NCBI GenBank assembly: GCA_021300535.1
Contig: JAJTED010000032.1
Coordinates: 1-32,180, forward strand
Source of the DNA: Planctomycetaceae bacterium
Lineage (GTDB): Bacteria; Planctomycetota; Planctomycetia; Pirellulales; UBA1268
Length of the DNA stretch: 32,180 bases
Reading direction: 5' to 3'
Shown one piece after another: positions 3,454 through 27,099 of this stretch. A program made the translations under genes and the position numbers. Under the pieces are notes generated by a model that was not told the DNA's origin, did not search any database, and saw nothing but the letters and a program-made list of their open reading frames with translations. Position 1 is the first letter of the stretch, and the number at the start of each line of letters is the position of its first letter.

Positions 3454-3525
3454 GGCTGTCGGGCCATCCATGGCCCCGACAGCCTTGGGCCGTCGCGGCG
3501 AACGCCAAGGGTTCGCCGGACGGCC
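3454..3525 (+). repeat. Family B two-hairpin element, copy B1
   Basis: Hairpin 1 (3454-3484) pairs GGCTGTCGGG with CCCGACAGCC around a CCATCCATGG core. It is followed by TTG and hairpin 2 (3488-3525), in which GGCCGTC pairs with GACGGCC and, inside, GGCGAAC (3497-3503) pairs with GTTCGCC (3511-3517) around the loop GCCAAGG. It begins 13 nt after the stop of the upstream gene and has the same sense. A further small hairpin follows at 3529-3550. Confidence 0.8.
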
Positions 3526-3617
3526 TGGCGGTCGCACCTCCGGGCGACCGTGGCCGAAGCGGGGCTGCGGCACGCGGCGCGGCCTTTGGCCGCTGCGTGC
3601 GGTTGGGCGCCTCGGCT

Positions 3618-3693
3618 GCCCGCCTGGAGGGCGGGCTTTCGGGAGCCGGCGGCGGCCGGCCAAGCAACGCGAGGCAGGATGCCGAGGCGTTGC
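3618..3693 (-). repeat. Family C three-hairpin element, copy C1
   Basis: On the minus strand it reads hairpin 1 (3664-3693, outer arms GCAACGC/GCGTTGC), hairpin 2 (3645-3660, GCCGGC/GCCGGC) and hairpin 3 (3618-3636, GCCCGCC/GGCGGGC). A near-identical direct copy is at 3990-4065. Flanking GC-rich hairpins around 3571-3602 and 3705-3735 resemble each other and those near 26890. Confidence 0.75.
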
Positions 3694-3788
3694 GTGCACA
3701 CGGCACGCGGCGCGGCCTTTGGCCGCTGCGGGCCGGGAGCCGTCGATCCGCCGCTTTGGTGGTGAGGCACACCGGGGCCTGCGCTCAA

Positions 3789-3950
3789 CCAAAAAGCCCG
3801 CGGCGGAAGCCGGGGGACTCCGGGTGGCATGCCTTTCCGGTTGCCATGCGGTGCGGGTGCGAACCGGCGCAGGGTGTGCGGTCGTGCGGCATGGAGGACG
3901 GGGTGTTTTTCATGCGCGGTGTCCCCGGGTTTCCACCCGGGGCTTTTTGG
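3789..3950 (+). repeat. Family A REPIN-like element, copy A1
   Basis: About 162 bp bounded by a left hairpin (stem CGGC/GCCGGGGG type, GGAA loop) and a right hairpin (CCCCGGGT / ACCCGGGG, TTCC loop on this strand) in inverted orientation. The outside ends are AAAAAGCC and GGCTTTTT. The inner part carries the family text 'GGCATG' and 'GTTTTTCATG'. The left stem carries CCCGCGG instead of CCCCCGG, giving one mismatch. Confidence 0.8.
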
Positions 3951-3989
3951 GCAACGGTTGCGGCGCCTTTTTTGCGGTACATTTTGGCT

Positions 3990-4065
3990 GCCCGCCTGGA
4001 GGGCGGGCTTTCCCGAGCCGGCGGCGGCCGGCCAAGCAACGCGAGGCAGGATGCCGAGGCGTTGC
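3990..4065 (-). repeat. Family C three-hairpin element, copy C1' (direct repeat of C1)
   Basis: Same three hairpins as C1, almost base for base, in the same orientation. On the minus strand it starts about 18 nt after the stop of the amidohydrolase-like gene that ends at 4084, so it lies in the sense of that gene and could form its 3' end. The stretch 3951-3989 between A1 and this copy shows nothing else I can name. Confidence 0.75.
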
Positions 4066-4083
4066 GTGCACACGGAGCCGGCG

Positions 4084-5319
4084 TCACCGCGGCTCGTCGG
4101 CGACGATGCGGCCGTCGATCACCACGGCGGTGCAGTGCGCCGTGTACTCGAAGGGATCGCCGTCGAATACGGCGACGTCCGCATCGCGGCCCGGCTGGAG
4201 CGAGCCGACCCGGTCGGCGATGCCGAGAATCCGGGCCGCGTCGATCGTGATCGTGGCCAAGGCCTCCTCCGTCGAGAGGCCGTTGGCGGCGGCGACCGCC
4301 GCCTCGAAGAGAGCCACGCGGGTCTTGGGAACGTAGCCCTCGTAGCCGCTCTGCAGGGCCACCGGGATGCCGGTCGCCCGCAGTTTGGCCGCCGTCTCGA
4401 AGCTGATGTTCTCCGTCTCCCCCATGCCGGCCCGGCGCATCGTGGGGTGGAGGATCACCGGCACGCCGGCGGCCTTGATGCGGTCGGTCGCCAGATAGGC
4501 CTCGGCCGCGGAGTCGAGCACGATGCGGATTCCGAACTCGGCCGCGACCCGCAGGGCCGCGTCGATGTCGGTCGCCCGGTTCACGGTCACCAGGAGCGGC
4601 AGCTTGCCGGCGAGCACGTCGGCGAACACCTCGCGACGCAGGTCGCGGTCGGGCCGCTTCTCGGCGTCGGCGAGCCCGCGCTTGCGGGCATACTCCCGGG
4701 CCTTCACCAGTTCGCCGCGGAGCATCGCCACCGCCTTGCTGCGGGTGCCCGGAGACTTCTTGTCGTCGCTCGGCCGCGCCTCGTCGCCGAGCGTCACCGC
4801 GACCATGGCCACGGGCTTCAGCGTCGCCTCCTCGACCGTCGCGCCGACGGTCTTCACCACCATCGTCTGGCCGGAGACGAGCGCCCCGGGGGCGTGGCCG
4901 GTGTGGATGGTCGTGATCCCGAAGCCGCGGATCCACTCCACGAGCCGCTCGCGGGGATTGTACGAGTCGAGCGCCCGCAGTTCCGGCTGCACCGGCTCGC
5001 CGGTGTCGAGCTGGTCCTGGTCCTGCGGCTGGTTGAGGAAGCCGGCGAGCCCGACCGCCGTGTGGGCGTCGATCAGGCCCGGAGTGACCACCGCGCCGCG
5101 GAGCACACGCATGCCCGGCGGGATCACCACCTCCGCCGCCGGTCCGACCTGCTTCACCTTGCCGTTCTCGAGCAGCACGACGCCGTCGCGGATCGCCGGG
5201 CCTGCCATCGTGTGGACGATGTCACCGCGGATGGCCAGCGGCGCCGCCGGCTCCGCGGCGGCGATGCCGGCGGGCAGGGCGAACCCGAGCAGCAGGAGAT
5301 GAAGCGGGATGCGGCTCAT
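4084..5319 (-). CDS. Amidohydrolase-like protein, metal ligands lost (probable pseudoenzyme)
   Basis: 411 residues with a signal peptide (residues 1-22, hydrophobic LLLLGFALPAGIAAA), so it is exported. The fold pattern is that of the imidazolonepropionase-like amidohydrolases: an N-terminal beta sandwich, 'GLIDAH' after strand 1, and a C-terminal 'GSLQPGRDADVAVFDGDP'. Compared with its neighbour, the metal-binding residues are gone. HxH is H86-T-A, the VHHHAH segment is VTVNRA, VLHHASEA is VLDSAAEA, and FHTDDP is LQSGYE. It therefore probably cannot hydrolyse a ring amide by the usual route and may be a structural or regulatory partner. Its ATG overlaps the TGA of the upstream gene (ATGA at 5316-5319), which indicates translational coupling. 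Confidence 0.85.
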   Translation of the reverse strand: MSRIPLHLLLLGFALPAGIAAAEPAAPLAIRGDIVHTMAGPAIRDGVVLLENGKVKQVGPAAEVVIPPGMRVLRGAVVTPGLIDAHTAVGLAGFLNQPQDQDQLDTGEPVQPELRALDSYNPRERLVEWIRGFGITTIHTGHAPGALVSGQTMVVKTVGATVEEATLKPVAMVAVTLGDEARPSDDKKSPGTRSKAVAMLRGELVKAREYARKRGLADAEKRPDRDLRREVFADVLAGKLPLLVTVNRATDIDAALRVAAEFGIRIVLDSAAEAYLATDRIKAAGVPVILHPTMRRAGMGETENISFETAAKLRATGIPVALQSGYEGYVPKTRVALFEAAVAAANGLSTEEALATITIDAARILGIADRVGSLQPGRDADVAVFDGDPFEYTAHCTAVVIDGRIVADEPR

Positions 5320-6629
5320 CGTCCCTCCGCGAGGCGGTTGTCGGTGCAGCAGGCGTGGGCCCGCTGGTCGCGGCTGGCGCCGTACCCGCCGACGGCGAAG
5401 AGGCGGTCTTCGGGATCGTCGCGATCGAAGACCTTGCGGCCCTCAACCCAGGTCTGCAGCACCTTCGTGCGAACGGACAATGGATCGCCCGAGAGCACGA
5501 CGAGGTCGGCGTCCTTGCCCGGCTGGAGCGTGCCGATCCGCCCTTCGAGCCCGAGCATCCTGGCGCCCGCGAGCGTCAGGGCCTCGAGAGCCTTGCCCCG
5601 CGACATGCCGGCCCGCACGCCGAGGGCTGCCGTGCGGAGGAAGAGCCGCGAGTCGGTGACGGGATCGTCGGTGTGGAACGCGCAGGGCACGCCCGCCTTT
5701 TCGAGCACGGCGCCGGTCGCCAGCGACATGTCCATGGCCTCGATCTTGCCGCCGGGCGCGTCGACCACGATCACGGAACAGGCGGCCCCCGCCTGCGCGA
5801 GAGCGTCGGCCACCTTCCAGGCCTCGCTGGCGTGGTGCAGCACCACCTTGAAGCCGAACTCATCCCGCAGCCGGAGCACCGTCAGCAGGTCGTCGGCCCG
5901 ATGGGCATGATGGTGGACGATCACTCGCCCGTCGAGCACGTCCACGAGGCCCTCCATCTCCAGGTCGCGGTCGGGCAGTTTCGCCGGGTCGCCCTGGGCG
6001 TCGGCCACCTTGCGGCGGTAGTCCTGGGCCTTGAGAAACTTCTGCCGCACCAGGGCCGCCGACTTCGACCGTGTGCCAGGAAAGGGAGGGTCTTTCTGCG
6101 AGTTCGTGCCGTTGGCCATCTTCATGCCACCGAGCGGCCGGCCCGCATCATCGCGGATCAGCACATCGTCGATCGTGGTCGCCTTGCGGAGTTTGACGTA
6201 CACGGTCTGGCCGCTCAGGAGGTGGCCCGAGCCGGGCATGATGTTGAGCGTGGTCAGGCCGCCGGCCGCTGCCTTGCGGAACCCCGTGTCGCGGACGTTG
6301 ATCGAGTCGAGGATCCGCACGTCAGGCTGGATCGGCCCGCTGGCGTCGCCGCCCCAGCCGCCGCCCACGTGGCTGTGGGTATCGATGAGCCCGGGCATGA
6401 TCACCCGGCCGGCGCACTCGACCCGCTCCGCGCCGGCCGGCACGGGCGTCGATGCGCTCGGGCCGATGGCCACGATCTTTCCGCCGGCGACGACGACCGT
6501 GCCCGCCGGGATGGGCGGGGCGGCGATCGGCAGCACCTCGGCCCCCACGAAGGCGACGGCTTTCTCCTGGCCGCGGACGGCGGTCGGCACGAGCAGGCAG
6601 GCGACGGTGGCGAGACAGGCGAAACGCAT
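5316..6629 (-). CDS. Exported metal-dependent amidohydrolase
   Basis: 437 residues from the ATG at 6629, which has GGAGG about nine bases upstream; the open frame further upstream runs through a tRNA gene and is not coding. Residues 1-20 are a signal peptide (cleavage near VRG-Q). The metal site of the amidohydrolase superfamily is intact: H85-S-H87, a His cluster at 239-243, H265/H266, and H319 with D321 in FHTDD. 'GRIGTLQPGKDADLVVL' near 365-380 is the family's C-terminal signature. It probably hydrolyses a cyclic amide or dipeptide-like substrate in the periplasm; the substrate is unknown. It forms a coupled pair with the degenerate homologue downstream. Confidence 0.88.
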   Translation of the reverse strand: MRFACLATVACLLVPTAVRGQEKAVAFVGAEVLPIAAPPIPAGTVVVAGGKIVAIGPSASTPVPAGAERVECAGRVIMPGLIDTHSHVGGGWGGDASGPIQPDVRILDSINVRDTGFRKAAAGGLTTLNIMPGSGHLLSGQTVYVKLRKATTIDDVLIRDDAGRPLGGMKMANGTNSQKDPPFPGTRSKSAALVRQKFLKAQDYRRKVADAQGDPAKLPDRDLEMEGLVDVLDGRVIVHHHAHRADDLLTVLRLRDEFGFKVVLHHASEAWKVADALAQAGAACSVIVVDAPGGKIEAMDMSLATGAVLEKAGVPCAFHTDDPVTDSRLFLRTAALGVRAGMSRGKALEALTLAGARMLGLEGRIGTLQPGKDADLVVLSGDPLSVRTKVLQTWVEGRKVFDRDDPEDRLFAVGGYGASRDQRAHACCTDNRLAEGR

Positions 6630-6644
6630 GGTGGATTCCTCCAG

Positions 6645-6718
6645 TGGGCGACGAGGGACTCGAACCCCCAACCCCCTCGGTGTAAACGAGGTGCTCTGAC
6701 CAATTGAGCTAGTCGCCC
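6645..6718 (-). tRNA. tRNA-Val (anticodon TAC)
   Basis: Reading the minus strand from 6718, the acceptor arm GGGCGAC pairs with GTCGCCC, the D stem is GCTC/GAGC, the anticodon stem is CCTCG/CGAGG around loop TTTACAC (anticodon TAC, decoding GUA/GUG valine codons), and the T arm has the TTCGAGT loop. The discriminator is A at 6645. CCA is not encoded. Its 3' end lies only 15 nt before the start codon of the amidohydrolase gene on the same strand. Confidence 0.95.
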
Positions 6719-6727
6719 TGTGTATAC

Positions 6728-6821
6728 GTCGAAAAAGCCATCCATGGCCTTTTTCGACTTGATCGGTCGATGGCGAAGCCAAAGGTTCGCCATGACCGAC
6801 GTGCGTCGCATCGTGCGACGC
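6728..6821 (+). repeat. Family B two-hairpin element, copy B2, plus small hairpin
   Basis: Hairpin 1 (6728-6758) pairs GTCGAAAAA with TTTTTCGAC around CCATCCATGG. Hairpin 2 (6763-6799) pairs TCGGTC with GACCGA and TGGCGAA with TTCGCCA around loop GCCAAAGG. A third hairpin (6803-6821, GCGTCGC/GCGACGC, loop ATCGT) follows. It lies nine bases from the tRNA-Val 5' end, antisense to the tRNA, and is the only B copy not placed after a stop codon. A fragment of the hairpin 1 core recurs at about 6838-6850. Confidence 0.8.
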
Positions 6822-6875
6822 GAGTGTACCGAACGTCAGCCATCCATGTCTTTTTTCAGGGTGCCGACCAAGCCC

Positions 6876-7035
6876 ACAAGAAGCCCCCGGCGGAAGCCGG
6901 GGGACTCCGGGTCGCATGACTTCCCGTTCGCCATCCGATGCGGGGTTGAGCCAGGCGAGGACGTGCCATGTGCGGCATGGACGCCGGGGCGGTTTTCGTG
7001 CCCGGTGTCCCCGGGTTTCCACCCGGGGCTTCTTG
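6876..7035 (+). repeat. Family A REPIN-like element, copy A2
   Basis: Full-length copy (about 160 bp). The left hairpin has arms GCCCCCGGC/GCCGGGGG with GGAA loop followed by ACTCCGGGT. The right hairpin has CCCCGGGT/ACCCGGGG and ends GGCTTCTTG. The inner segment includes 'GTGCGGCATGGACG' and 'GTTTTCGTGCCC'. Confidence 0.85.
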
Positions 7036-7045
7036 TCCGCTGTCC

Positions 7046-7076
7046 ACAAGAAGCCCCCGGCGGAAGCCGGGGGACT
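7046..7076 (+). repeat. Family A left-hairpin fragment, A2b
   Basis: Isolated left hairpin of family A (ACAAGAAGCC, stem, GGAA loop, stem, ACT) directly after A2; the rest of the element is missing. From 7077 to 7198 I see only the probable promoter region of the next gene. Confidence 0.7.
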
Positions 7077-7167
7077 GGCGGTCTGTCGTCAAACCATTGC
7101 GGCTCGTCATGATGATCCCATGCAAGGTGCCCAGGGCCGCGGCGTGGACCGCGGGTGATCGCGATGG

Positions 7168-7193: not shown

Positions 7194-7198
7194 TGTGC

Positions 7199-8105: not shown

Positions 8106-8136
8106 GCCGCGCGGGAACGATCCAAAAAGCCACTGC

Positions 8137-9915
<1,779 letters not shown>

Positions 9916-12122: not shown

Positions 12123-12815
12123 ATGTCCGACGAACCACTCGCCTTCTCGCCCGAGCAGTTTTGCGGACAGGCCCGCGTCTTCCCGCTGCCGAACCTGGTG
12201 ATGTTTCCGCACGTCATGCAGGCGCTCCACGTCTTCGAGCCGCGGTATCGGGCGCTGGTCGAGGAGGCCGTCGAGGGGGACCGCCTGCTGGCGCTGGGGG
12301 TGCTCGCCCCGGGCTGGGAGCAGGCCTACGAGGGCCGTCCGCCGCTGCGATCCACAGCCTGCCTGTGCCGCATCGCCACGCACCAGCGGACGAAGCAGGG
12401 CACCTACAACATGCTCGTCCTCGGCGTCCGCCGGCTGCGGCTCATCGACGAACTGCCGCCAAAGAAGCTGTTTCGCGTCTGCGAGGCGGAGATTCTTGAC
12501 GATCTTGAGCCTGACGAGGCGCCTGCCGGTGCGGCGGCCATCCTCCAGCGGGAGCTGCTCTCGGCCTTCAAGCGGGCGATGCCCAAGATCCCCAACGCCT
12601 ACGAGCAGCTCGACCAACTCCTCGGCAGCCAGATCACCCTCGGCATGCTGGCCGACATCGTCTCCTATACGATCGACCTCGACCTGGAGGTGAAGATGCG
12701 GCTCCTCGCCGAGTGCGACGTCTTCCGCCGCACGCAGCTCCTCCTGGAGGCGATCGCCAACCGCCCCGCGACCGTCACCACGAGAGCCTTCCCGCCCGAC
12801 TTCAGCCGGAACTGA
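12123..12815 (+). CDS. Lon N-terminal (LON/PUA-like) domain protein
   Basis: 230 residues, with no ATPase or protease domain. The LON substrate-binding domain spans nearly the whole protein: 'FPLPNLVMFPHVMQALHVFEPRYRALVEEA' near residues 20-48 is the typical start, followed by 'IATHQRTKQGTYNMLVLGVRRLRL'. The C-terminal half (130-220) is helical. Stand-alone LON domains are common in bacteria and are thought to bind peptides or act as adaptors; the substrate is unknown. The stop at 12813-12815 is six nt before a family B element in the same sense. Confidence 0.88.
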   Translation: MSDEPLAFSPEQFCGQARVFPLPNLVMFPHVMQALHVFEPRYRALVEEAVEGDRLLALGVLAPGWEQAYEGRPPLRSTACLCRIATHQRTKQGTYNMLVLGVRRLRLIDELPPKKLFRVCEAEILDDLEPDEAPAGAAAILQRELLSAFKRAMPKIPNAYEQLDQLLGSQITLGMLADIVSYTIDLDLEVKMRLLAECDVFRRTQLLLEAIANRPATVTTRAFPPDFSRN

Positions 12816-12821
12816 CTTCAC

Positions 12822-12918
12822 GCCTGCGGGGCCATGCATGCTTCACGCCTGCGGCACCAGCCCTGGCCCCCGCAGGCTTGGGCCGTCGCGGCGAACGCCG
12901 AGGGTTCGCCGGGCGGCC
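12822..12918 (+). repeat. Family B element, copy B3, with 14-nt tandem insertion in hairpin 1
   Basis: Hairpin 1 pairs GCCTGCGGGG (12822-12831) with CCCCGCAGGC (12868-12877), but its loop is enlarged by a second copy of CTTCACGCCTGCGG (12816-12829 and 12841-12854). Hairpin 2 (12881-12918) matches B1, with loop GCCGAGG. It starts six nt after the stop of the Lon-domain gene. Confidence 0.75.
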
Positions 12919-13010
12919 GCACCTCCGGGCGACCGTGGCCGCAGCGGGGCGGCGGCACGCGGTTGCCTTCGGCCGCTGCATGCGGTTTTGCCCGGGCCGC
13001 GCGTCTTTTC

Positions 13011-13174
13011 CCAAGAAGCCCCGGGTGGAAACCCGGGGACTCCGGGCATGAAAACCACCCCGCCGTCCATGCCGGATGACGACACGCAATTTCCCGGGTT
13101 CAAGCCCACATCGCATGACACCTGGGAAGTCATGCCACCCGGAGTCCCCCGGCTTCCGCCGGGGGCTTGTTGTG
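13011..13174 (-). repeat. Family A REPIN-like element, copy A4 (inverted)
   Basis: Full-length copy in minus orientation. About 50 bp next to its left end (13175-13225) also match, inverted, the flank of copy A8 (26588-26638), so the duplication extends past the element. From 13226 to 13288 I see nothing recognisable. Confidence 0.85.
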
Positions 13175-13288
13175 CCGTTCGCGCGTGTCAAGCTGAGAGC
13201 AAGACTGGGGAACGCGCAACATCAAAACTTCCGCCCGGGGCATTTTGTGTGGGAGGCTGATCGTCGTTGCCGGTCCCGGCGCCCGCGG

Positions 13289-14494
13289 CTACGGCCACCG
13301 GGCGGCCACTTCGCGGATCGCGGTGAAGTCGATCGTGCCCGCGTCGAGATTCCCCAGTTCGGGATGGCGAAACGCCACGCGGTGCCGTCCCGCCGCGAGA
13401 CCGGTGGCGGTGCAGGGCGTGGCGAGCGGCCGGCCGTCGGCGGCCACGAGCGGCACCCCGTCGACGAGCACGCCGGCCTCGAAGGGCTCGGTGATGAAGC
13501 TGACAGCGACCGTCTCCGAAGCGACGCCGCCGGCCGCGGCCGGCGGCGTCCGCGACACGCCGGCTTCCCGGCTCTGAAACACCGCCAGCACGCCCCCCGC
13601 CGCCGTGGCGACGAGTGCGGCGGCGGCCCAGACGCCTCGGCGCCGACGCGGCCGCGCAGCCGGCATTGCATCCAGCGCCGCCAGGAGTTCGCCGGCGTGG
13701 GCATGCCTGGCGTTGTGATCGCGGCTGGCGGCCCTGAGCGCCACGCGGTTGAGATGCGCGAGCACGGGGTTGGCCGCAATCTCGCGGGCCCGCTCGCCGA
13801 GCCGCGGAAACGCCTCCGCCGGCAACCCCGTGAGCATCTCGTAGATCACGAGGCCCGCGGCGTAGACGTCGGCCCGCAGGTCCATGCGGCCGTCGGGGGG
13901 CATGTAGCGGACGGTGCCCAGCCGCGAGAGGTGGGCCGCTGCGGGCACGAGGAGGCCGAAGTCAGCGAGCTTGAGCGTGCGGCCCACGAACAGACAGTTC
14001 GAGGGCTTCACGTCGCGGTGCACCATCCCCGCCGCGTGGAGGTGGGCGAGTCCGGCGGCGAGTTCCCGGGCGCACCGCAGGCACTCTTCGGCCGGCAGCG
14101 GCCCCTGCTCGAGCTTGAGCGCGAGCGTGGCCGGGCGGTAGGCGGGGTCGTTCGCCGCCGGCCGGCCCGACACGTCGTCGGCCGGATCCATCAGGGAGAA
14201 GAGCACCTCGTCGGTGCGGCCCACATGCTGGATGTCGAGCAGGTTGGGATGACGGGCGATCCGCTGGCTCTCCATCTGCGCCAGCGACACGATCTCCCGG
14301 CCCGCAGGGTCGGTCCTCTGTCCGCCGGGGTCGAGCGGAATGATCTTCACGGCCTTGAGGCCGCCAGTGGCTCGGTTGACGCCGAGCCACACCTCGCCGA
14401 ACCCGCCGCGGCCGATCCGCCGCACGAGATCGACATCGGGAACCGCCGGGGGTGGTGCTGCAGGGACCGCGGTCGTGGTGTCGGGGACGTTCAT
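13289..14494 (-). CDS. Transmembrane Ser/Thr protein kinase with C-terminal PEGA-like domain
   Basis: 401 residues from the ATG at 14494, which overlaps the TGA of the sigma-factor gene by four bases. The N-terminal Hanks-type kinase domain has the glycine loop GRGGFGEVW (28-36), Lys50 in AVKII, HRDVKPSN (159-166) and DFG (178-180), so it should be active. A basic stop-transfer (RPRRRR, 281-286) and one TM helix (about 287-306) lead to an external domain (329-390) resembling PEGA: 'VSFITEPFEAGVLVDGVPL'. It probably senses outside conditions and phosphorylates cytoplasmic Ser/Thr. Overlap with the sigma gene suggests it works with that factor, a pairing known in planctomycetes. Confidence 0.9.
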   Translation of the reverse strand: MNVPDTTTAVPAAPPPAVPDVDLVRRIGRGGFGEVWLGVNRATGGLKAVKIIPLDPGGQRTDPAGREIVSLAQMESQRIARHPNLLDIQHVGRTDEVLFSLMDPADDVSGRPAANDPAYRPATLALKLEQGPLPAEECLRCARELAAGLAHLHAAGMVHRDVKPSNCLFVGRTLKLADFGLLVPAAAHLSRLGTVRYMPPDGRMDLRADVYAAGLVIYEMLTGLPAEAFPRLGERAREIAANPVLAHLNRVALRAASRDHNARHAHAGELLAALDAMPAARPRRRRGVWAAAALVATAAGGVLAVFQSREAGVSRTPPAAAGGVASETVAVSFITEPFEAGVLVDGVPLVAADGRPLATPCTATGLAAGRHRVAFRHPELGNLDAGTIDFTAIREVAARWP

Positions 14495-15222
14495 CGGGCG
14501 GGGCCGTTCTTCGGACGGGAATCTGCCTCGGCGTCGCCCAGCTGCGCCGCCAGAAGCGTCTGCTCCACCTGCACGGTCACGGCCCGCTCGACTGCGGGCC
14601 GCGGGGCGTCTTTCGCGGCTTCCCGCAGCCGTACGGCGAGCCCTGCCGGCTCGAAGACGGCGCCGAGTTCCTTGAGCCGCGCGAGGATCCGCCGGCGGGC
14701 GAGGTAGACGGCATTGCGCGACAGGCCCGTGACCCGCGCCACGTCGGCCCCCGGCATCTCCTGAAGGACGGCAAGCTCGAACGCCTGGAACGTGGCCGGC
14801 GTCACTTCGTGCCGCACGACGTCGAGCAGCGAGGCGAGCGTGGCGAGGTCGAAGGCCCGGTCCCACTCGGCGTCGGGCCGGGCCGCGTCGTCGGGCAGCG
14901 CCGCGAGCGCGGCATCGTCGGCCAGCGGCTGCACGCGGTCGGCCGGCGCGCGGCGGCGGGCGGCCACGGCGTTGCGGACGACCGTGCCGAGCCAGTCGCG
15001 AAACCGGCCCCGCGTCGGATCGTAGCGGAAGGCCGCGCGGCCCTTGAAGACGGCAAGCATCGCCTCCTGCACGATCTCCTCGGCCGTGTGGTCGGAGCAG
15101 CCGCGGCGGCGGGCCGTCGTGAAGATCAGCCGCCAGTACCGCTCGTAAAACTCCTCCCACGCCAGCGGGTCGGAGGCCTCACGAAGCCGCTCCAGGAGTG
15201 TGACCTGCGTCTGCGTGTGCAT
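14491..15222 (-). CDS. ECF-type RNA polymerase sigma factor
   Basis: 243 residues. Region 2 (about 15-85) carries 'YWRLIFTTARRRGCSDHTAEEIVQEAMLAVFKG', typical of sigma-70 region 2, and 'GRFRDWLGTVVRNAV'. Region 4 (about 140-185) contains the helix-turn-helix 'GADVARVTGLSRNAVYLARRRILARLKE'. The C-terminal 55 residues extend beyond a normal ECF factor. It should direct RNA polymerase to a small regulon. The following kinase gene overlaps it by ATGA, and the PEGA gene at 15394 diverges from it, so either may be a target or partner. No anti-sigma factor is seen. Confidence 0.88.
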   Translation of the reverse strand: MHTQTQVTLLERLREASDPLAWEEFYERYWRLIFTTARRRGCSDHTAEEIVQEAMLAVFKGRAAFRYDPTRGRFRDWLGTVVRNAVAARRRAPADRVQPLADDAALAALPDDAARPDAEWDRAFDLATLASLLDVVRHEVTPATFQAFELAVLQEMPGADVARVTGLSRNAVYLARRRILARLKELGAVFEPAGLAVRLREAAKDAPRPAVERAVTVQVEQTLLAAQLGDAEADSRPKNGPAR

Positions 15223-15393
15223 GAGAAGATTGCCCCGCGGAGCCCGAGGCTCGCGAACCAGCCGACGGTCGGTCAGGATACACGGGAATCGACCCGCCAG
15301 CCGACGACCCGCGACAGATTTTCAGCTCGCCGCGCATACGGTGTGAAGAGGCCGTCGCGACCCGCGGCCTGGTCCCTCCCCGGAGCCCTTTCC

Positions 15394-16980
15394 ATGCGTC
15401 TGCCAACCCTCTCCATCGCGGTGCTGGCCGCGGTCTTCAGCGTCGCCACGGCCCCGCCTTCGGCCGCATTCGACCTGCCGGACAACGGGGAAAGTGCGCA
15501 GCCGCCGCAGGTGGAGACGTCGGCGGATGCCAAGACGCGGCTCTACGTGAAGACGCTCCCGCCGGGGGCCCAGGTCACGCTCGACGGCAAGCCGCTCGGC
15601 GCCAGCGACGGGCTCTTTCTCGTGCCGGCGGGCACGGCGAAGGTGACCGTGCAGTTCGACGGCGCCGAGCCGCAGGTGCGGCAGGTGGAGATCGCCGCGG
15701 GGCGGATCACGCGGGTGGAAATCGCGGCGGCGGCGCCGGCGGCCTCCGCGGCGGCCGCCACCGACACGTTCGAGCAGTTCAAGCCGCCACGCGTTGCGCC
15801 ACGGCTTACGTCGCCCCGGGAGCGAATCAACCCCAAGCCGCTGACTGCGATCGATGACATGCTGAAAAAGCCGCTGGGGAGGTCGGTCGATTTTCAGGAG
15901 ACATCCTTTCGGGATGCGATTGCCAAGCTCCGGGATCTGGCGGCCATCGACCTGCTCATGGATCTACGCGGCATAGAAGACGCGGGTATCGATTCCGATG
16001 CGGCGTTCACCGCGCGAGTGCCGGTCGGCGCCCCGCTGGCCGCCGTGCTCGACATGGTGGTTCGTGATATGGGGCTCGCGTGGATCGTTCGCGATGACCT
16101 GATCGAAATCACGACGCCGGACCGAGCCGACCAACGGCTGTTCGTGCATGTGCATGACGTGTCGGATCTCGCCGCGGCCCCCGGCGGCCTGGCGTTGCTC
16201 GGCGACACGATCAAGCGTGCCGTCCACCCGGAGACGTGGAAAGAAAACGGAGGGCCGGGCGTGATCGCGCCGGATGCGGCCTCCGGCACGGCGCTCGTCG
16301 TCTCCAACTCGTGGCGGGTGCAACGGCGGATTGCCGGGCTCCTGGACGTGCTGCGCCGTCTGAAGGCGACGCCGGTCGAGGCCCGCCGCCCGCTCGGTGC
16401 CGCCGGCTACTGGAGCGATCAGCCGGTAGTCGTTGCGGCGCGGGCCGCGCTCGACAAAGCAGTGGACGCAGTCTTCATGAAGACTCCGCTGCGGGACGTG
16501 ACGGCGGAGCTGTCAAAGCGCGCGGGCGTGCCGATCTCGATAGACTTCCGGGCGGTCGAGGAATCAGGAGTCGAGCTCGACGCGCCAGTCTCGCTCGCGA
16601 TCAAGGGCGGGCGACTCGCGGCCGTGCTCGATCGCATCCTGGAGCCGATGCAACTCGCGGTCGAGGTAGGGGACGAGGGGCTCGTCGTCACGAGGCCGGC
16701 AAGATCGCTCGACACTATGGCGGTCGCGGTCTATCCCGTCGGTCATCTCGGCGGCGGCGACCGCTCGGTCGGTTCGCTGGCCGAGTTGATGATGTCGCAG
16801 GTCGATCCGACCGCGTGGGAAACAGTCGGTGGCGAGGCGGCCGTCTTTCCGATCGACGGCGACGTGCCCTGTCTCGTCGTCCGCCAGTCCACCGCCGGCC
16901 ACCGTGCGGTGCACGAGTTTCTGACATCGCTCCCCCAGCCTCGGCAGCCCGGCGCCTTCGCCCCGACTCTCGAACCCTAG
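15394..16980 (+). CDS. Exported PEGA protein with duplicated secretin-N-like module
   Basis: 528 residues from the ATG at 15394, with GGAG about nine bases upstream and a signal peptide (residues 1-25, AVLAAVFSVATAPPSA). Residues 48-112 form a PEGA domain (VKTLPPGAQVTLDGKPLGA). Two similar modules follow. Module 1 (about 153-322) and module 2 (about 353-513) each start with a secretin/TonB short-N-like segment (FRDAIAKLRDLAAIDLLMD; LRDVTAELSKRAGVPISID) and end with a second domain containing 'ETW/TAW', a GG pair and 'LVV' then a helix. The duplication is visible by eye. It is likely an envelope protein. It diverges from the sigma/kinase unit. Confidence 0.8.
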   Translation: MRLPTLSIAVLAAVFSVATAPPSAAFDLPDNGESAQPPQVETSADAKTRLYVKTLPPGAQVTLDGKPLGASDGLFLVPAGTAKVTVQFDGAEPQVRQVEIAAGRITRVEIAAAAPAASAAAATDTFEQFKPPRVAPRLTSPRERINPKPLTAIDDMLKKPLGRSVDFQETSFRDAIAKLRDLAAIDLLMDLRGIEDAGIDSDAAFTARVPVGAPLAAVLDMVVRDMGLAWIVRDDLIEITTPDRADQRLFVHVHDVSDLAAAPGGLALLGDTIKRAVHPETWKENGGPGVIAPDAASGTALVVSNSWRVQRRIAGLLDVLRRLKATPVEARRPLGAAGYWSDQPVVVAARAALDKAVDAVFMKTPLRDVTAELSKRAGVPISIDFRAVEESGVELDAPVSLAIKGGRLAAVLDRILEPMQLAVEVGDEGLVVTRPARSLDTMAVAVYPVGHLGGGDRSVGSLAELMMSQVDPTAWETVGGEAAVFPIDGDVPCLVVRQSTAGHRAVHEFLTSLPQPRQPGAFAPTLEP

Positions 16981-16986
16981 CTGTCC

Positions 16987-17084
16987 GTGGACAAAGCCCT
17001 CCATGGCGTTTGTCCACTTGGCCGACCGGTGGAAACGCAGACCTCGGCGCAGCCGAGGCAACGCCGAGGGTTTCCACGGTCGGC
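16987..17084 (+). repeat. Family B element, copy B4, with nested hairpin
   Basis: Hairpin 1 (16987-17017) pairs GTGGACAAA with TTTGTCCAC around a CCTCCATGG core. Hairpin 2 (17021-17084) pairs GCCGACC/GGTCGGC and GTGGAAAC/GTTTCCAC, but its loop holds an extra hairpin (CCTCGGC/GCCGAGG) before the usual GCCGAGG. It starts six nt after the PEGA-gene stop. Confidence 0.8.
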
Positions 17085-17197
17085 ACTCCTCGCATCCTGC
17101 TCGGGCGGACTTGTTCCACAGTCTGCTAGCCAGCGGCGGCCAAGGCGGCGGCCACCCCACCCGCCCCCTGTTGATCGGTTTCCCGGGATCGGCCACG

Positions 17198-17226
17198 TTG
17201 ACAAGACGGATTTGTGGAAATACGGA
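17198..17226 (+). promoter_or_regulatory. Possible promoter before the antitoxin remnant
   Basis: A perfect -35 TTGACA (17198-17203) is followed by a 17-base spacer and TACGGA, a poor -10. It lies just upstream of the ATG at 17234. If real, it once drove the toxin-antitoxin remnant. Confidence 0.3.
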
Positions 17227-17233
17227 TTCCCAT

Positions 17234-17350
17234 ATGAAGACGACGATCGAATTGCCGGACGAACTTTTCATTGCTGCGAAGAAATAGGCGGCCGAACTCG
17301 GCGAACCGCCGCGGGCGGTCTTCGAGCGGTGCCTGCGGGCCGAACTCGGC
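17234..17350 (+). pseudogene. VapB-like antitoxin remnant with in-frame stop
   Basis: The first 17 codons (MKTTIELPDELFIAAKK) match the N-terminus of ribbon-helix-helix antitoxins. Codon 18 is TAG (17285-17287), after which the same frame continues as AAELGEPPRAVFERCLRAELG, which also fits the family. The frame then runs directly into family A copy A5 at about 17350. No toxin gene (VapC/PIN domain) is seen nearby. I read this as a dead toxin-antitoxin module cut by a stop and by repeat insertion. A short real peptide or a readthrough product cannot be excluded. Confidence 0.65.
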
Positions 17351-17513
17351 ACAAGAAGCCCCCGGCGGAAGCCGGGGGACACCGGGTCGCACGCCTTCCC
17401 GTTCGCCATGTGATGTGGGTTTGAACCGGGAAATTGCGTGCCGTCATCCGGCATGGACGGCGGGATGGTTTTCATTCCCGGAGTCCCCGGGTTTCCACCC
17501 GGGGCTTTTTGGG
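17350..17513 (+). repeat. Family A REPIN-like element, copy A5
   Basis: Full-length copy (164 bp) starting within or right after the antitoxin remnant. Left hairpin with GGAA loop, right hairpin ending GGGGCTTTTTGGG. It is followed immediately by A6. Confidence 0.88.
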
Positions 17514-17518
17514 TTCGG

Positions 17519-17681
17519 CACAAGAAGCCTCCGGCGGCAGCCGGGGGACTCCGGGTGACAGACCTTGCCGGGTGCCATGCGGTGCGGGTGTGAACCGGTG
17601 CGGCGCGCGTCGTCGTGCGGCATGGACGGCGGGATGGTTTTCATTCCCGGTGTCCCCGGGTTTCCACCCGGGGCTTTTTGG
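17519..17681 (+). repeat. Family A REPIN-like element, copy A6 (tandem with A5)
   Basis: Full-length copy (163 bp) five bases after A5 in the same orientation. The left loop stretch is GGCA instead of GGAA. A 15-bp start of another copy (CACAAGAAGCCTCCGG) lies at 17697-17712, and beyond it only the folE leader. Confidence 0.85.
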
Positions 17682-17797
17682 AAGGCTCGCCACCCACACA
17701 AGAAGCCTCCGGGGTGGTCTTGTCGAGCCACGGAGCGCTTTGGCCGCCGTTGCCGGCCACCCCGCGACAAACTCCCGCGGGCGATTACAGTGGCAGC

Positions 17798-22873: not shown

Positions 22874-22875
22874 CG

Positions 22876-24401: not shown

Positions 24402-24402
24402 C

Positions 24403-25548
24403 GTGAAGGCCACACCCTCCCGCCGCTACCTCGACAACGCGGCCACGTCGTGGCCGAAGCCCGAACCCGTGTTGGCGGCCTGGAACCGGGCGGCCCGCGA
24501 GGTGGGCGCGGCGGCGGGGCGGGCGGCCTATCGTTCCGCGGTCGAGGCCGACGCGATCCGGCAGCGGGCCCGCGCGGCCGCGGCCCGGCTGCTCGGCGGC
24601 GTCGATCCCGCGCGGGTGGCCCTGCCGGCGGGCTGCACACTCGGGCTGAACCTGGCGATCCATGGTCTCGTGCGGCCCGGCGATCATGTGATCGCCACGG
24701 CGGCCGACCACAACGCCGTGCTCCGGCCGTTGCACGCCCTGGCCCGTCGGGGGATCGCCGAACTCACGATCCTCCGCTGCGACGGCCTGGGACGGGTCGA
24801 TCCCGCCGCGGTCGCCGCCGCCTGGCGGCCCGGCACGCGGCTTGTGGCGTGCCCGCACGCTTCGAACGTGACCGGGGCGATCCAGGACGTGGCCGCGATC
24901 GCAGCAGTCGCGCATGCTCGCGGCGGGATGCTCCTCGTGGACGCCGCGCAGACACTCGGGCAGATTCCGCTCGACGTGGCGGCGCTCGGGGCCGACGTCG
25001 TCGCCGCGCCGGCCCACAAATGGCTGCACGGCACCGCGGGCGTGGGCCTGCTCTGGGCGCGGGCGGGCATCGAGCCCGAACCGCTCGTGCAGGGCGGCAC
25101 CGGCTCCCGCAGCGAATCGCTCGACATGCCCGAGGCGTTTCTCGACCGCATGGAGCCGGGGACGCCCGACGTGCCGGCGCTGGCCGCCTGCGCCGCGGCG
25201 GCGGACTGGCTGGAGGCGCGGGGGCTCGCGGCCACCGGCGCCGACTGCCGGGAACTCGCCGCCGCGTGCGCCGCGCGGCTGCGGGTGATCGGCGGCGTGC
25301 AGGTGTTCGCTGCCACGGGTGCGCCGATTGTGAGTTTCACGGTCGAGGGTTATGCTCCCGCCGACGTCGCCGTGATCCTCGAGCAGGCCGCGAGCATCGA
25401 GGTGCGGTCGGGGTTTCATTGCGCCGCGTGCGTGCACGAGCATCTCGGCACGTCCGCCGGCGGCACGGTGCGGGCGAGTTTCGGGCCGAGCAACGATCGT
25501 GCAGACGTCGATGCGATCGTGCGGGTGGTGGAAACGATCCGGGGCTGA
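24403..25548 (+). CDS. Cysteine desulfurase / class V aminotransferase-like
   Basis: 381 residues from GTG at 24403, one base after the moaA stop. PLP enzyme of the NifS/SufS/CsdA type: 'RYLDNAATSWPKP' at the start, Asp180 in 'LLVDAAQT', PLP Lys206 in 'APAHKWLHG', and a candidate catalytic Cys340 in 'SGFHCAACVHEHLGT'. These enzymes take sulfur from cysteine. Because it directly follows moaD, moaE and moaA, the likely role is sulfur supply for MoaD thiocarboxylation, but iron-sulfur or thiolation duties cannot be excluded. Confidence 0.9.
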   Translation: MKATPSRRYLDNAATSWPKPEPVLAAWNRAAREVGAAAGRAAYRSAVEADAIRQRARAAAARLLGGVDPARVALPAGCTLGLNLAIHGLVRPGDHVIATAADHNAVLRPLHALARRGIAELTILRCDGLGRVDPAAVAAAWRPGTRLVACPHASNVTGAIQDVAAIAAVAHARGGMLLVDAAQTLGQIPLDVAALGADVVAAPAHKWLHGTAGVGLLWARAGIEPEPLVQGGTGSRSESLDMPEAFLDRMEPGTPDVPALAACAAAADWLEARGLAATGADCRELAAACAARLRVIGGVQVFAATGAPIVSFTVEGYAPADVAVILEQAASIEVRSGFHCAACVHEHLGTSAGGTVRASFGPSNDRADVDAIVRVVETIRG

Positions 25549-25560
25549 AGAGGTGCGAGC

Positions 25561-25986
25561 ATGGCGGGCATTCCCAAGGACGTGTGGTATGCGGACGGCC
25601 TGCGGTTTCAGTGCACGCAGTGTGGTGACTGCTGCTCGGGAGCCGAGGGCTATGTGTGGGTGAATCAGGCGGAGATCGACGCCATGGCCGCGCGGACGGG
25701 GATGACCGCGGCCGACTTCGAGGCGGCCTACGTGAAGCGGGTGGGCATGCGGCGGTCGCTGAAGGAGCGTCCCGGTGGCGACTGCGTGCTGCTGGACGAG
25801 AAGACGCGCACGTGCACGGCGTATGAGGAGCGGCCGCGGCAGTGCAAGACGTGGCCCTTCTGGGACTCGAACCTGCGGTCGCCGGAGGCCTGGGCGGAGG
25901 CTGCCGAGGCCTGTCCGGGCTGCAACAAGGGCCAGATCGTGCCGCTCGAGTCGATCGTCGAGCAGGCCAGCCGGATTCGGATCTGA
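25561..25986 (+). CDS. YkgJ-family Cys-cluster protein
   Basis: 141 residues. The N-terminal 'FQCTQCGDCCSG' (C18, C21, C24, C25) is the YkgJ/zinc- or iron-chelating signature, followed by 'GDCVLLDEKTRTCTAYEERPRQCKTWPF' with more Cys at about 74, 84 and 94, and 'CPGCNKG' near 120. It probably holds a metal or Fe-S centre; the role is unknown. The 12-bp gap after the desulfurase gene suggests one transcript. Its stop (25984-25986) is six nt ahead of family C copy C3 in the same sense. Confidence 0.88.
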   Translation: MAGIPKDVWYADGLRFQCTQCGDCCSGAEGYVWVNQAEIDAMAARTGMTAADFEAAYVKRVGMRRSLKERPGGDCVLLDEKTRTCTAYEERPRQCKTWPFWDSNLRSPEAWAEAAEACPGCNKGQIVPLESIVEQASRIRI

Positions 25987-25992
25987 CCACAC

Positions 25993-26066
25993 GCGAACCC
26001 GCGGCATCGTGCCGCGGTTCGCTTGGCGGGCCTTCGCCCGCTGGGGTCAACCCGGCCCTCCAGGCC
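25993..26066 (+). repeat. Family C three-hairpin element, copy C3
   Basis: Hairpin 1 (25993-26022) GCGAAC..CGCGGC with loop ATCGT; hairpin 2 (26026-26041) GCGGGC/GCCCGC; hairpin 3 (26054-26066) GGCC/GGCC with loop CTCCA. It starts six nt after the YkgJ-gene stop. A family A left-hairpin fragment follows at 26075-26104. Confidence 0.75.
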
Positions 26067-26074
26067 TGGCCGCT

Positions 26075-26104
26075 CACAAGAAGCCTCCGGCGGAAGCCGG
26101 GGAG
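26075..26104 (+). repeat. Family A left-hairpin fragment, A7
   Basis: CACAAGAAGCCTCCGGCGG, then AAGCCGGGGAG: only the left hairpin of family A is present. It sits between family C copies C3 and C4. Confidence 0.7.
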
Positions 26105-26114
26105 CATGGTGCAC

Positions 26115-26190
26115 GCGAACCTGCGGCATCGTGCCGCAGGTCGCTTGGCGGGCCTCCGCCCGCTGGCGAGAGGCCGCCCTTCCGGCGGCC
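26115..26190 (+). repeat. Family C three-hairpin element, copy C4
   Basis: Hairpin 1 (26115-26144) uses CTGCGGC/GCCGCAG where C3 has CCGCGGC/GCCGCGG, a compensatory change, with the same ATCGT loop. Hairpin 2 (26148-26163) GCGGGC/GCCCGC. Hairpin 3 (26172-26190) GGCCGCC/GGCGGCC, loop CTTCC. Confidence 0.78.
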
Positions 26191-26638
26191 GGACTATGCG
26201 TCGTTCACCGGTTCGCGACCCGGACCGGCGTGGTACCGCTCGGGGCTGCCCACACCCTCTCGCCGGACGTTCGCTTCGGGCATCCCTGCCCTCCGCTCAC
26301 TCGGAGGTGTCGGCGCTTCGCCCTCCGGGCTCCGCTTGCCACCTACGCCGTCTCGAGGGGATGGGCAGCCCCGCGCTGCGTCGACGAGTGCCCAGGAGGT
26401 CGATCCAACCACCCCCTGCACGCAGCGGCCGCGGGCCGCGCCGCGTGGCGAGGTTACGCAACGTCTCGGCTTCGTGCCTCGTCGGAGACGCGGGAGTGCC
26501 GGGGTGTCCTTGAAGCCCGAGGCGTGAGCCGAGGGAATGCGGATGGGCTTCCGGGGTGGCGATGCGTATTCCCTCAGCTTGCGCTTTTTGATGTTGCGCG
26601 TTCCCCAGTCTTGCTCTCAGCTTGACACGCGCGAACGG
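26191..26638 (+). other. Intergenic region with degenerate hairpins and a family C remnant
   Basis: No gene is supported here. A worn family C copy is at about 26419-26489: a GC-rich lead hairpin (CACGCAGCGGCC, inverted), then GTCTC/GAGAC arms around a CTCGGCTTCGTGCC-like stretch. 26588-26638 matches, inverted, the flank of copy A4 at 13175-13225. The remainder holds small palindromes such as CCTCCG/CGGAGG near 26290. Confidence 0.6.
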
Positions 26639-26801
26639 CACAAGAAGCCCCCGGCGGGAGCCGGGGGACTCCGGGTCGCATCTCGTCCCGTGTGCCATGC
26701 GATGTGGGTTTGAACCGGGAAAGTGCGTGCCGTCGTCTGGTATGGATGGCGGGGTGGTTTTCATGCCCGGAGTCCCCGGGTTTCCACCCGGGGCTTCTTG
26801 G
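26639..26801 (+). repeat. Family A REPIN-like element, copy A8
   Basis: Full-length copy (163 bp) in plus orientation. With about 50 bp of left flank it is an inverted near-copy of the A4 locus at 13011-13225, while the other five full copies do not share this flank. 26802-26887 holds nothing I can name. Confidence 0.85.
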
Positions 26802-26927
26802 ACGGGCGACGAGACCGATTCCCAATTCAAAGGATCTGCAAAACGACGTTCGCAAGCGGATTCCTGCAGCGGCGACGCGCTGCCTCGGCACGCAGCGGCC
26901 GCAGGCCGCGCCGCGTGGAGAGTTTAC

Positions 26928-27003
26928 GCAACGCCTTGGCCTCGTGCCTCGCGTTGCTTTGCCGGCCTCCGCCGGCTTTTGATGGCCCGCCCTCCAGGCG
27001 GGC
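26928..27003 (+). repeat. Family C three-hairpin element, copy C2
   Basis: Hairpin 1 (26928-26957) GCAACGC/GCGTTGC with a CTCGTGCC inner part; hairpin 2 (26961-26976) GCCGGC/GCCGGC; hairpin 3 (26985-27003) GCCCGCC/GGCGGGC. It is preceded by a GC-rich hairpin at 26889-26917. It is opposite in orientation to the C1 copies but otherwise matches them closely. Confidence 0.75.
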
Positions 27004-27023
27004 AACCAACGCGCTGCCTCGGC

Positions 27024-27099
27024 ACGCAGCGGCCGGGACGAACCTTGGCTTCGTCCGCGGCTGCGTAAGCCTGCCGGGGCCATGGATGGCCCGGCAGGC
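27024..27099 (-). repeat. Family B two-hairpin element, copy B5
   Basis: On the minus strand hairpin 1 (27099-27069) pairs GCCTGCCGGG with CCCGGCAGGC around CCATCCATGG. Hairpin 2 (27066-27024) pairs ACGCAGC/GCTGCGT and GGACGAA/TTCGTCC around the loop GCCAAGG, identical to B1. It starts five nt after the stop of the lipoprotein gene, in its sense. Confidence 0.82.

What the first reader, a model, noticed from the sequence alone, without database searches (positions are those of the whole stretch)
3454..27099. Dispersed two-hairpin element (family B) with fixed cores on covarying stems
Five copies (3454, 6728, 12822, 16987, and 27099 on minus) keep the same plan. Hairpin 1 closes a CCATCCATGG-like core, then a TTG-type linker (TTA in the minus copy), then hairpin 2 with a GCCAAGG or GCCGAGG loop. 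The stems differ completely yet stay paired: GGCTGTCGGG/CCCGACAGCC, GTCGAAAAA/TTTTTCGAC, GTGGACAAA/TTTGTCCAC, GCCTGCCGGG/CCCGGCAGGC. Hairpin 2 varies likewise (GGCGAAC/GTTCGCC, TGGCGAA/TTCGCCA, GGACGAA/TTCGTCC). Constant loops on fully covarying stems argue for selection on a folded RNA or DNA shape, not just copying. I know of no named family with this pattern.
Basis: partly seen in the sequence, partly recalled or inferred. Interest (0 to 1): 0.88.

Follow-up and report, generated by a model that had tools for sequence, protein, structure and literature searches.

The report
Stop-codon-hugging mobile two-hairpin repeat
A short two-hairpin DNA repeat has spread in one family of planctomycete bacteria; its loops and a one-base bulge stay nearly constant while its stems change in matched pairs, and it often sits exactly where a gene ends.

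Summary
The element is real and sharper than described. Hairpin 1 is a variable 9-bp stem, a bulged C and a nearly constant cap (GCC-AUCCAU-GGC or GCC-CUCCAU-GGC). Hairpin 2 is 7 bp, a bulged G, 8 bp and a GCC[A/G]AGG loop. On 43 copies the covariation score is 0.711, against 0.170 for shuffles and at most 0.108 for slid pairings. A covariance model recovers all five window copies and scores at least 144 matches in the 4.0-Mb genome. It matches all 22 genus genomes searched and none of 293 others sampled from the phylum (strict filters). Two window copies are atypical: 12822 lacks the CCATCCATGG core, and 16987 has CCCTCCATGG plus a loop insert. The missed clue is position. A stop triplet directly abuts the element in 45 of 109 copies examined in its own genome, 27 of them after 100 or more open codons. 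Two copies abut tRNA 3' ends. At orthologous genes it is patchy, with different paired stems at the same site. One subclass is a unit of about 119 bp, often bordered by CTAG. I read it as a MITE/REP-like mobile repeat under structural constraint. Its effect on mRNA is inferred and its motor unknown.

The parts
3454..3484 (+). Copy 1 hairpin 1: arm 3454-3462, cap GCCATCCATGGC 3463-3474, bulged C 3475, arm 3476-3484
   Evidence: sequence; R1 match 3448-3528, 95.4 bits; fold
3488..3525 (+). Copy 1 hairpin 2, loop GCCAAGG
   Evidence: alignment A2, pair counts
6728..6758 (+). Copy 2 hairpin 1 (GTCGAAAAA stem), bulged C 6749; lies upstream of tRNA-Val (6644-6718, minus)
   Evidence: 79.9 bits
6762..6800 (+). 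Copy 2 hairpin 2, loop GCCAAAGG
12812..12815 (+). CTGA (TGA is the stop of the LON-domain gene 12123-12815) directly abutting copy 3
12822..12877 (+). Copy 3 hairpin 1, core disturbed by a nested partial duplication of its own 5' flank (CTTCACGCCTGCGG)
   Evidence: sequence; R1 match 12816-12921, 69.5 bits
12881..12918 (+). Copy 3 hairpin 2, loop GCCGAGG
16977..16980 (+). Left flank CTAG; its TAG is the stop of ORF 14452-16980
16981..17125 (+). Copy 4, full A-rich-class unit, 145 bp (119-bp unit plus insert in the hairpin-2 loop)
16987..17017 (+). Copy 4 hairpin 1, cap GCCCTCCATGGC, bulge G 17008
   Evidence: R1 59.8 bits
17021..17084 (+). Copy 4 hairpin 2 with inserted nested hairpin before GCCGAGG
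17126..17129 (+). Right flank CTAG, candidate 4-bp target duplicate of 16977-16980
27069..27099 (-). Copy 5 hairpin 1 (GCCTGCCGG stem), bulged C 27078, linker TTA; a TGA triplet at 27107-27105 overlaps the first base of the element
   Evidence: 84.5 bits
27028..27065 (-). Copy 5 hairpin 2, loop GCCAAGG

Best explanation
It is a small, non-coding, dispersed mobile repeat (MITE/REP-like) of one planctomycete family. Its left 81 nt must fold into two hairpins with nearly constant loops and one-base bulges, while the stem letters are free as long as they pair. It is often found directly after the last base of a gene: a stop codon, most often preceded by C, or a tRNA 3' end. There the gene's own end is kept intact, and the A-rich subclass points to how: a unit of about 119 bp, often bordered by CTAG. 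Shown: the architecture, the covariation, the copy number, near-confinement to the family in the genomes searched, the abutment of stops, patchy presence at orthologous sites, and tandem growth. Inferred: mobility itself, and that a protein recognises caps and bulges, on single-stranded DNA during mobilisation or on RNA, which is why these are kept and stems are free. Also inferred: in the mRNA the element puts a stable hairpin 6-7 nt past the stop codon, which would shield the 3' end and could slow ribosomes at the stop, as recalled for E. coli REPs near stop codons. The enzyme that moves it is unknown.
For: Covariation: 0.711 vs 0.170 shuffled (0/500) and at most 0.108 slid. On 74 distinct hairpin-1 sequences chosen by cap only: 0.435 vs 0.151 shuffled and at most 0.170 slid. 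One-base offset: 83 of 114 copies pair with it, 4 without. Copies: at least 144 scored in G000; 22 of 22 genus genomes searched, G000 included; 0 of 293 other phylum genomes. Position: a stop triplet ends exactly before element base 1 in 16 of 48 exact-cap and 29 of 61 other G000 copies, against about 0.65 per offset elsewhere; with 100 or more open codons upstream, 13 and 14, against 0.19 and 0.43. C precedes that stop in 39 of 45 vs 64 of 163 background gene stops (Fisher 8e-9). The spacing recurs in two other genera, G025 and G029. tRNA-Ala 3' ends directly precede copies in L033 and L038. Mobility: of 18 intact same-genus LON-gene ends, G000, G002, G016 and G021 carry an element and 14 do not, by eye, with the protein C-terminus conserved. 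GAPDH: G000 and G029, plus hairpin variants in G016 and G021, of 29 intact ends read. Pyruvate carboxylase: 10 of 30 ends read carry the paired hairpin, stems GGCTGCACG, GGCTGCAAC, GGCTGCGAA, GCGTGCACG and GCCTGCGGT. A-rich unit: 18 copies of 117-145 bp, 12 with flanks matching at 3 or 4 of 4 letters.
Against: The flank duplication is not proven: only 4 of 18 A-rich units have CTAG on both sides, left-right matches beyond the shared CTAG preference give p about 0.06, and the terminal inverted repeat is weak (101 of 2000 shuffles reach it). The G+C-rich class shows no recognisable right end or duplication, and stops at the 48 exact-cap copies are TGA-rich like the background, so CTAG does not explain that class. 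In 64 of 109 copies no stop triplet abuts at offset 0, and in 18 of the 45 that do the frame is open for fewer than 100 codons. The same-strand bias is weak in the 61 further copies (35 to 21, p 0.08). No transposase is identified, and Y1 transposase is absent from some copy-rich genomes. No empty site was compared at nucleotide level, since relatives are too divergent. Nothing here shows transcription.
Confidence: 0.6

Rival explanations
1. Host-owned 3'-UTR RNA element (terminator, stabiliser or protein-binding site) kept at gene ends by selection, not a mobile repeat.
For: Same strand as the upstream gene in 34 of 40 G+C-rich copies (binomial 8e-6). Same spacing from stop codons in three genera. 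Same site occupied in 10 of 30 pyruvate carboxylase orthologs read, including one of another genus.
Against: Presence is patchy at LON and GAPDH. Many copies form tandem arrays. No T run follows hairpin 1. One copy lies between a gene with an Rpb6/omega domain and, by my reading, coaBC on the same strand about 90 nt downstream (L019). Downstream gene strand is random (21 of 41).
Confidence: 0.2
2. A true REP/BIME system moved by a RAYT (Y1 HUH) transposase.
For: Size, mainly extragenic position, imperfect palindromes with a conserved bulge, mosaic arrays. One Y1 match in G000 with an element about 0.3 kb upstream of its frame; a related hairpin directly upstream of the Y1 frame in L331 of G029.
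Against: G012 (43 exact cap copies), G015 (54, 75% complete) and G032 (28) have no Y1 match. No GTAG head; the A-rich class has TGTC one base before the stem, a variant reported for CGTC repeats, but its stems start with G-C and not A-T. Of the 17 Y1 neighbourhoods fetched, many have other inverted repeats.
Confidence: 0.15
3. Member of the CsrA-type AYGGAY RNA group (Rfam TwoAYGGAY) read on the opposite strand, where the cap loop is AUGGAU.
For: Pseudomonas loci with the same 14-mer score as TwoAYGGAY (L074, L090). CsrA is in 60 of 60 related genomes.
Against: No TwoAYGGAY match in the window at E up to 10 or in L298 and L382 at the gathering score. The mRNA strand of the upstream gene carries UCC, not GGA. 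Hairpin 2 has no GGA loop.
Confidence: 0.04
4. Stem matching is a mutational by-product (quasi-palindrome correction, arm copying) without selection.
For: Both arms change together, as template switching would give.
Against: It does not explain nearly constant loops and a constant one-base offset across genera, since correction would be expected to erase the bulge.
Confidence: 0.1

Closest known systems
CIR repeats of Caulobacter/Brucella ('CerM-associated intergenic repeats' as the review PMC2229807 spells it; one section read)
   Same: About 110 bp, abundant, intergenic; RNA proposed to fold as two long arms joined by a linker with a conserved motif exposed in a terminal loop.
   Different: CIR motif is the GANTC methylation site; different phylum; no stop-codon abutment or one-base bulges mentioned in the section read.
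REP/BIME elements and RAYTs (passages of PMC2817692 and PMC3733652)
   Same: Short imperfect palindromes, many copies, intergenic mosaics (stop proximity of E. coli REPs recalled).
   Different: REPs carry a GT(A/G)G or CGTC head; here loops are kept and stems vary, no clear head tag, and Y1 is missing from some copy-rich genomes.
Bacterial MITEs such as RUP or Correia/NEMIS (passages of PMC2229807)
   Same: Non-coding units under 200 bp, candidate short target duplication; CTAG fits the IS5 motif YTAR (passages of PMC10359306).
   Different: Terminal inverted repeat is weak; two internal hairpins; stems vary compensatorily.
TwoAYGGAY RNA (RF01731)
   Same: Cap loop reads AUGGAU on the reverse strand; two Pseudomonas loci with the same 14-mer are TwoAYGGAY by Rfam.
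   Different: Planctomycete element not recognised by the model; hairpin 2 is unrelated.

Membership tests
MITE (non-autonomous DNA transposon) | Small non-coding unit in many copies with defined ends | tested here: inconclusive
   met for the A-rich class: 18 copies of 117-145 bp with sharp ends; no right end found for the G+C-rich class
MITE (non-autonomous DNA transposon) | Target site duplication | tested here: inconclusive
   CTAG on each side in 7 of 18, on both in 4; left-right matching beyond that p about 0.06
MITE (non-autonomous DNA transposon) | Terminal inverted repeats shared with an autonomous transposon | tested here: inconclusive
   weak repeat, 101 of 2000 shuffles as good; the only longer pair of such ends in the own-genome loci scanned, about a tenth of the genome, is a 242-bp tandem pair (L414)
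REP/BIME moved by RAYT | GTAG or CGTC head next to the palindrome | tested here: inconclusive
   base counts before the stem show no GTAG; the A-rich class has TGTC one base before the stem, a variant named for CGTC repeats, but lacks their A-T first pairs
REP/BIME moved by RAYT | RAYT gene in genomes that carry the repeat | tested here: not met
   no Y1 match in G012, G015, G032, all copy-rich; draft genomes, so absence is not certain
TwoAYGGAY RNA | Match to the Rfam model | tested here: not met
   window up to E 10; L043, L051, L053, L298, L382 at gathering threshold
Intrinsic terminator | G+C-rich hairpin followed by a T run | tested here: not met
   hairpin 1 is followed by TTG in 50 of 83, no T run
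CIR repeats | GANTC motif exposed in a terminal loop | tested here: not met
   loops are AUCCAU-like and GCCRAGG
Integron attC | Recombination core sites and integrase-linked cassette array | not tested
   considered only because attC sites also follow stop codons (recalled)

The most novel reading that the evidence does not exclude
A new kind of mobile element that is built to land on gene ends: it targets the final bases of genes (stop codons and tRNA 3' ends), leaves or rebuilds them intact, and is recognised through two loop-and-bulge signatures on interchangeable stems, so that the same fold serves both its mobility and a tolerated or useful mRNA 3' end next to the terminating ribosome.
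Probability: 0.2. Interest if true: 0.85.

Novelty: new variant of a known kind. Interest (0 to 1): 0.62.

Why it matters
Dispersed bacterial repeats are usually recognised by conserved sequence. Here sequence is free in the stems and mainly shape, loops and bulges are kept, which lets one ask what is recognised and by what. Tight docking at stop codons and tRNA ends gives a testable route by which mobile DNA can spread in dense genomes without damage, and may place hairpins where they affect translation termination and mRNA decay. The covariance model makes the family searchable.

Tried and rejected
Rfam on the window at gathering and at E up to 10: the tRNA and chance hits. RAYT as the motor: absent from some copy-rich genomes; neighbourhoods. 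CsrA site: wrong strand for the upstream mRNA and no model match. Direct repeats around the element as long target duplications: 13 of 79 had an exact repeat of 12 nt or more downstream (control 1), but those looked at are tandem units, which in pyruvate carboxylase include the gene's own 3' coding end. Right end of the G+C-rich class through recurrence of its left 4-mer: nothing shared. PEGA protein orthologs: too divergent to compare 3' ends. Paper searches listed no description of this element; most subscription papers are not held.

Caveats on counts: the 43 rows of A2 are 44 less one duplicate, chosen for hairpin-1 pairing of 8 or more of 9 (the pyruvate carboxylase rows by site) and for the GCC[AG]A(A)GG loop, so helix 1 and the loop are biased there; helix 2 was not chosen for pairing. 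A1 (74 rows) was chosen for the exact cap, not for pairing, with class C left out by its own context. In one search, 114 of 133 copies were kept after removing class C and 83 of 114 pair at 7 or more of 9. Of the 109 copies, 48 are exact-cap copies with 7 or more pairs and 61 are R1 hits without the exact cap that I picked from the 144. My gene caller is a simple codon-usage script and misses genes; one class C row (L026) was filed as class A. One false row (L410) is not among the 18. Orthologous ends were judged by eye on up to about 150 nt; for GAPDH and pyruvate carboxylase only the 30 best loci, of 59 and 55 genomes with a match, were read. Copies are related by descent, so shuffle counts are not probabilities. 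The 144 is a lower bound (150 of 8347 candidates scored), counts are capped at 116 scored, and one search scored 15 candidates per genome with stricter filters.
Full report
Observation. The five places were read on their strands. Three copies carry the cap CCATCCATGG, 16987 carries CCCTCCATGG, and 12822 has a disturbed core made by a partial second copy of its own 5' flank. Hairpin 2 is a 7-bp lower stem, one bulged G on the 5' side, an 8-bp upper stem and the loop GCCAAGG or GCCGAGG; 6728 has one more A and 16987 has an insert in the loop. RNA folding gives z-scores of -4.84, -6.90, -4.08, -6.20 and -5.13.

More than chance. In the window the motif alone is unremarkable (6 matches against 2.66 expected). 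In the whole genome the 12-mer occurs 67 times against 0 for the reversed control. In one search, 8 of the 67 rows were filed as class C, a different long structured element that holds the same 12-mer on its other strand; one more row of that kind (L026) was misfiled. A covariance model (R1, 81 positions) gives at least 144 matches in the genome and ranks the five window copies first.

Covariation. An ungapped alignment of 74 distinct hairpin-1 sequences from G000, G025, G029 and same-genus genomes, chosen by the cap and not by pairing, has 80.9% of cells paired (slid at most 49.3%) and a covariation score of 0.435 (shuffles 0.151, slid at most 0.170). The two-hairpin alignment of 43 copies has 95.5% paired, 319 cells changed on both sides and a score of 0.711 against 0.170. 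In A1 the measures 'pairs with a change on both sides' (8, shuffles 8.6) and 'further pair types' (36, shuffles 32.5, reached by 33 of 500) do not exceed the shuffles clearly; in A2 the first does (23 against 19.0, 0 of 500) and the second does not (55 against 51.1, 52 of 500). Among 83 well-paired copies there are 40 different 9-nt arms, and the offset base is C in all 83. Of 114 copies, 83 pair with that one-base offset, 4 without and 0 with two bases. Hairpin 2 loops were found after 49 of 83, 33 of them with an 8-bp upper stem. The copies share descent, so the shuffle test overstates independence; the slid control keeps relatedness.

How constant the loops are. A1 and A2 were chosen by the exact cap, so its constancy there means nothing. 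Among 61 further R1 hits in G000 without the exact cap, 20 have GCCCTCCATGGC, 5 GCCTTCCATGGC, 5 GCCATCCCTGGC, the rest other forms; 54 keep TCC; 40 of 61 have the GCC[AG]A(A)GG loop. At LON orthologs the caps are CCCTCGTGG (G021), CCCTCCATGG (G016) and CCATCGTGG (G002). So the loop is nearly constant in G000 and drifts between genomes.

Range. The exact 12-mer is frequent in several other genera of the family (86 in G025, 43 in G029, 28 in G032) but rare in others (1 in G022, 2 in G023), and near background in the rest of the order.

Position. For copies with a callable upstream gene, 34 of 40 of the G+C-rich class lie on the gene's strand; the downstream gene has no preferred strand (21 of 41). 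In the 61 further copies the bias is weaker (35 same, 21 opposite, 5 without a called gene; binomial 0.08). Counting triplets directly, a stop codon ends exactly at the base before the element in 16 of 48 exact-cap copies and 29 of 61 others, while other offsets average 0.65 and 0.67; with 100 or more open codons upstream the numbers are 13 and 14 against 0.19 and 0.43. These stops are preceded by C in 39 of 45, against 64 of 163 gene stops called in the same loci (Fisher 8e-9), and in the 61 copies they are TAG in 19 of 29 against 37 of 163 (Fisher 1e-5); in the 48 they are TGA in 11 of 16, like the background. In some copies CTAG is present although the called gene ends elsewhere, so part of this motif belongs to the target or the element. 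Copies also begin 0-1 nt after tRNA-Ala 3' ends in L033 and L038. In G025 and G029 the distance from called stop to cap is again 16 or 17 in 7 of 16 and 10 of 18 same-strand cases.

Orthologous sites. Behind the LON-domain gene (window 12123-12815) the 18 intact same-genus proteins end alike (FPPDFSxN with small changes); elements follow the stop in G000, G002, G016 and G021 and in none of the other 14, by eye. Behind GAPDH, of 29 orthologs with an intact end, G000 and G029 carry the element and G016 and G021 carry related hairpins. Behind the pyruvate carboxylase gene, of 30 orthologs read, 10 carry the paired hairpin (G000, G001, G005, G006, G009, G014, G015, G016, G018, G025), G013 has a cap without a paired arm, G002 and G021 show disturbed remains, and the other 17 have none that I could see. 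The stems differ between genomes while cap, bulge and hairpin-2 loop stay, in the nine complete enough to align. Some genomes use the same stem at this gene and elsewhere: G018 has GGCTGCGAA at this gene and in L298, and G000 has the hairpin 2 of L005. That suggests replacement or re-insertion from within the genome as well as change in place; it is an impression from examples, not a count. Tandem units at this gene include a copy of the last coding bases.

Ends. In the A-rich class the unit is 119 bp in 10 of 18 copies (117-145 in all), starting CTG[TC]C and ending in a CCACAGTCTG-like sequence. CTAG stands on the left in 7 of 18 and on the right in 7 of 18, on both sides in 4; 12 of 18 pairs match at three or four letters. 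L452 with TTAG on both sides and L487, from another genome, with CTAA on both sides argue for duplication, but matching beyond the common CTAG preference reaches only p about 0.06. YTAR is the target duplication motif given for IS5 in PMC10359306 (passages read). If insertion duplicates CTAG, a gene ending in C-TAG keeps its stop; this would explain the docking of that class. It does not explain the G+C-rich class, which sits at CTGA as well as CTAG and at tRNA ends, and for which no right end was found.

Mechanism. I favour a MITE/REP-like mobile repeat whose fold is recognised through caps and bulges. For the effect on the host, E. coli REPs within 15 nt of stop codons are reported to stall ribosomes (recalled, Liang and Deutscher 2015, nothing of it seen here); our hairpin begins 6-7 nt past the stop. 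That step is inference. RAYT, CsrA and terminator readings were examined and are not supported as such.

Literature seen: passages of PMC3733652, PMC2864571, PMC12320835, PMC2229807 (passages, one section), PMC2817692, PMC10359306; other entries only as search listings. Rfam 15 holds no match for the element in the window.

Noticed in passing
L043, L053, L051, L049, L020, L026, L037, L040 (middle of each locus): A different dispersed element of about 145 nt with nested inverted repeats (outer arms like GGGGUUGCCCGUGCCCC), carrying GCCATGGATGGC with GGA or GCA just outside it; no Rfam match for L043, L051, L053.
   Followed up: partly
L074 (2028-2178), L090 (1492-1556 and 1938-2000): Pseudomonas loci with the same 14-mer hold TwoAYGGAY (RF01731) by Rfam; the 14-mer occurs two or three times within about 1 kb there, hinting that this RNA is a dispersed repeat.
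   Followed up: partly
L038, minus strand, core at about 2000: Another small element with inverted ends (AAGCCCGTTCGGCACGA / TCGTGCCGAACGGGATT) sits inside the hairpin cap with ATCCATGGC on both sides; L016, L044 and L047 show a similar left junction.
   Followed up: partly
window 12816-17797: LON-domain gene and, by my reading, folE are close neighbours in some relatives but here are separated by a kinase and a PEGA gene bordered by copies 3 and 4 of the element.
   Followed up: partly
window about 6880-6915, 7025-7057 and 13008-13045; L328 around 3579-4106: A second hairpin repeat (GCCCCCGGCTTCCGCCGGGGGC, often with a T run and in opposed pairs), which also borders the only Y1 match found in this genome.
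   Followed up: no
window about 3621-3720 and 26925-27010: Further hairpin modules (GCCCGCCTGGAGGGCGGGC and following) shared by copies 1 and 5, so these intergenic regions are mosaics of several repeat types.
   Followed up: no
L375-L400, gene end of pyruvate carboxylase: In several genomes with the element the last codons and stop form a hairpin themselves (CGTTACGCTGACGCGTAACG; in G000 CGCTACGCTGACGCGTAGCG, a matched change).
   Followed up: no
L019: A copy lies in the short gap between a gene with an Rpb6/omega domain and, by my reading, coaBC on the same strand, so the element is tolerated between likely co-transcribed genes.
   Followed up: no
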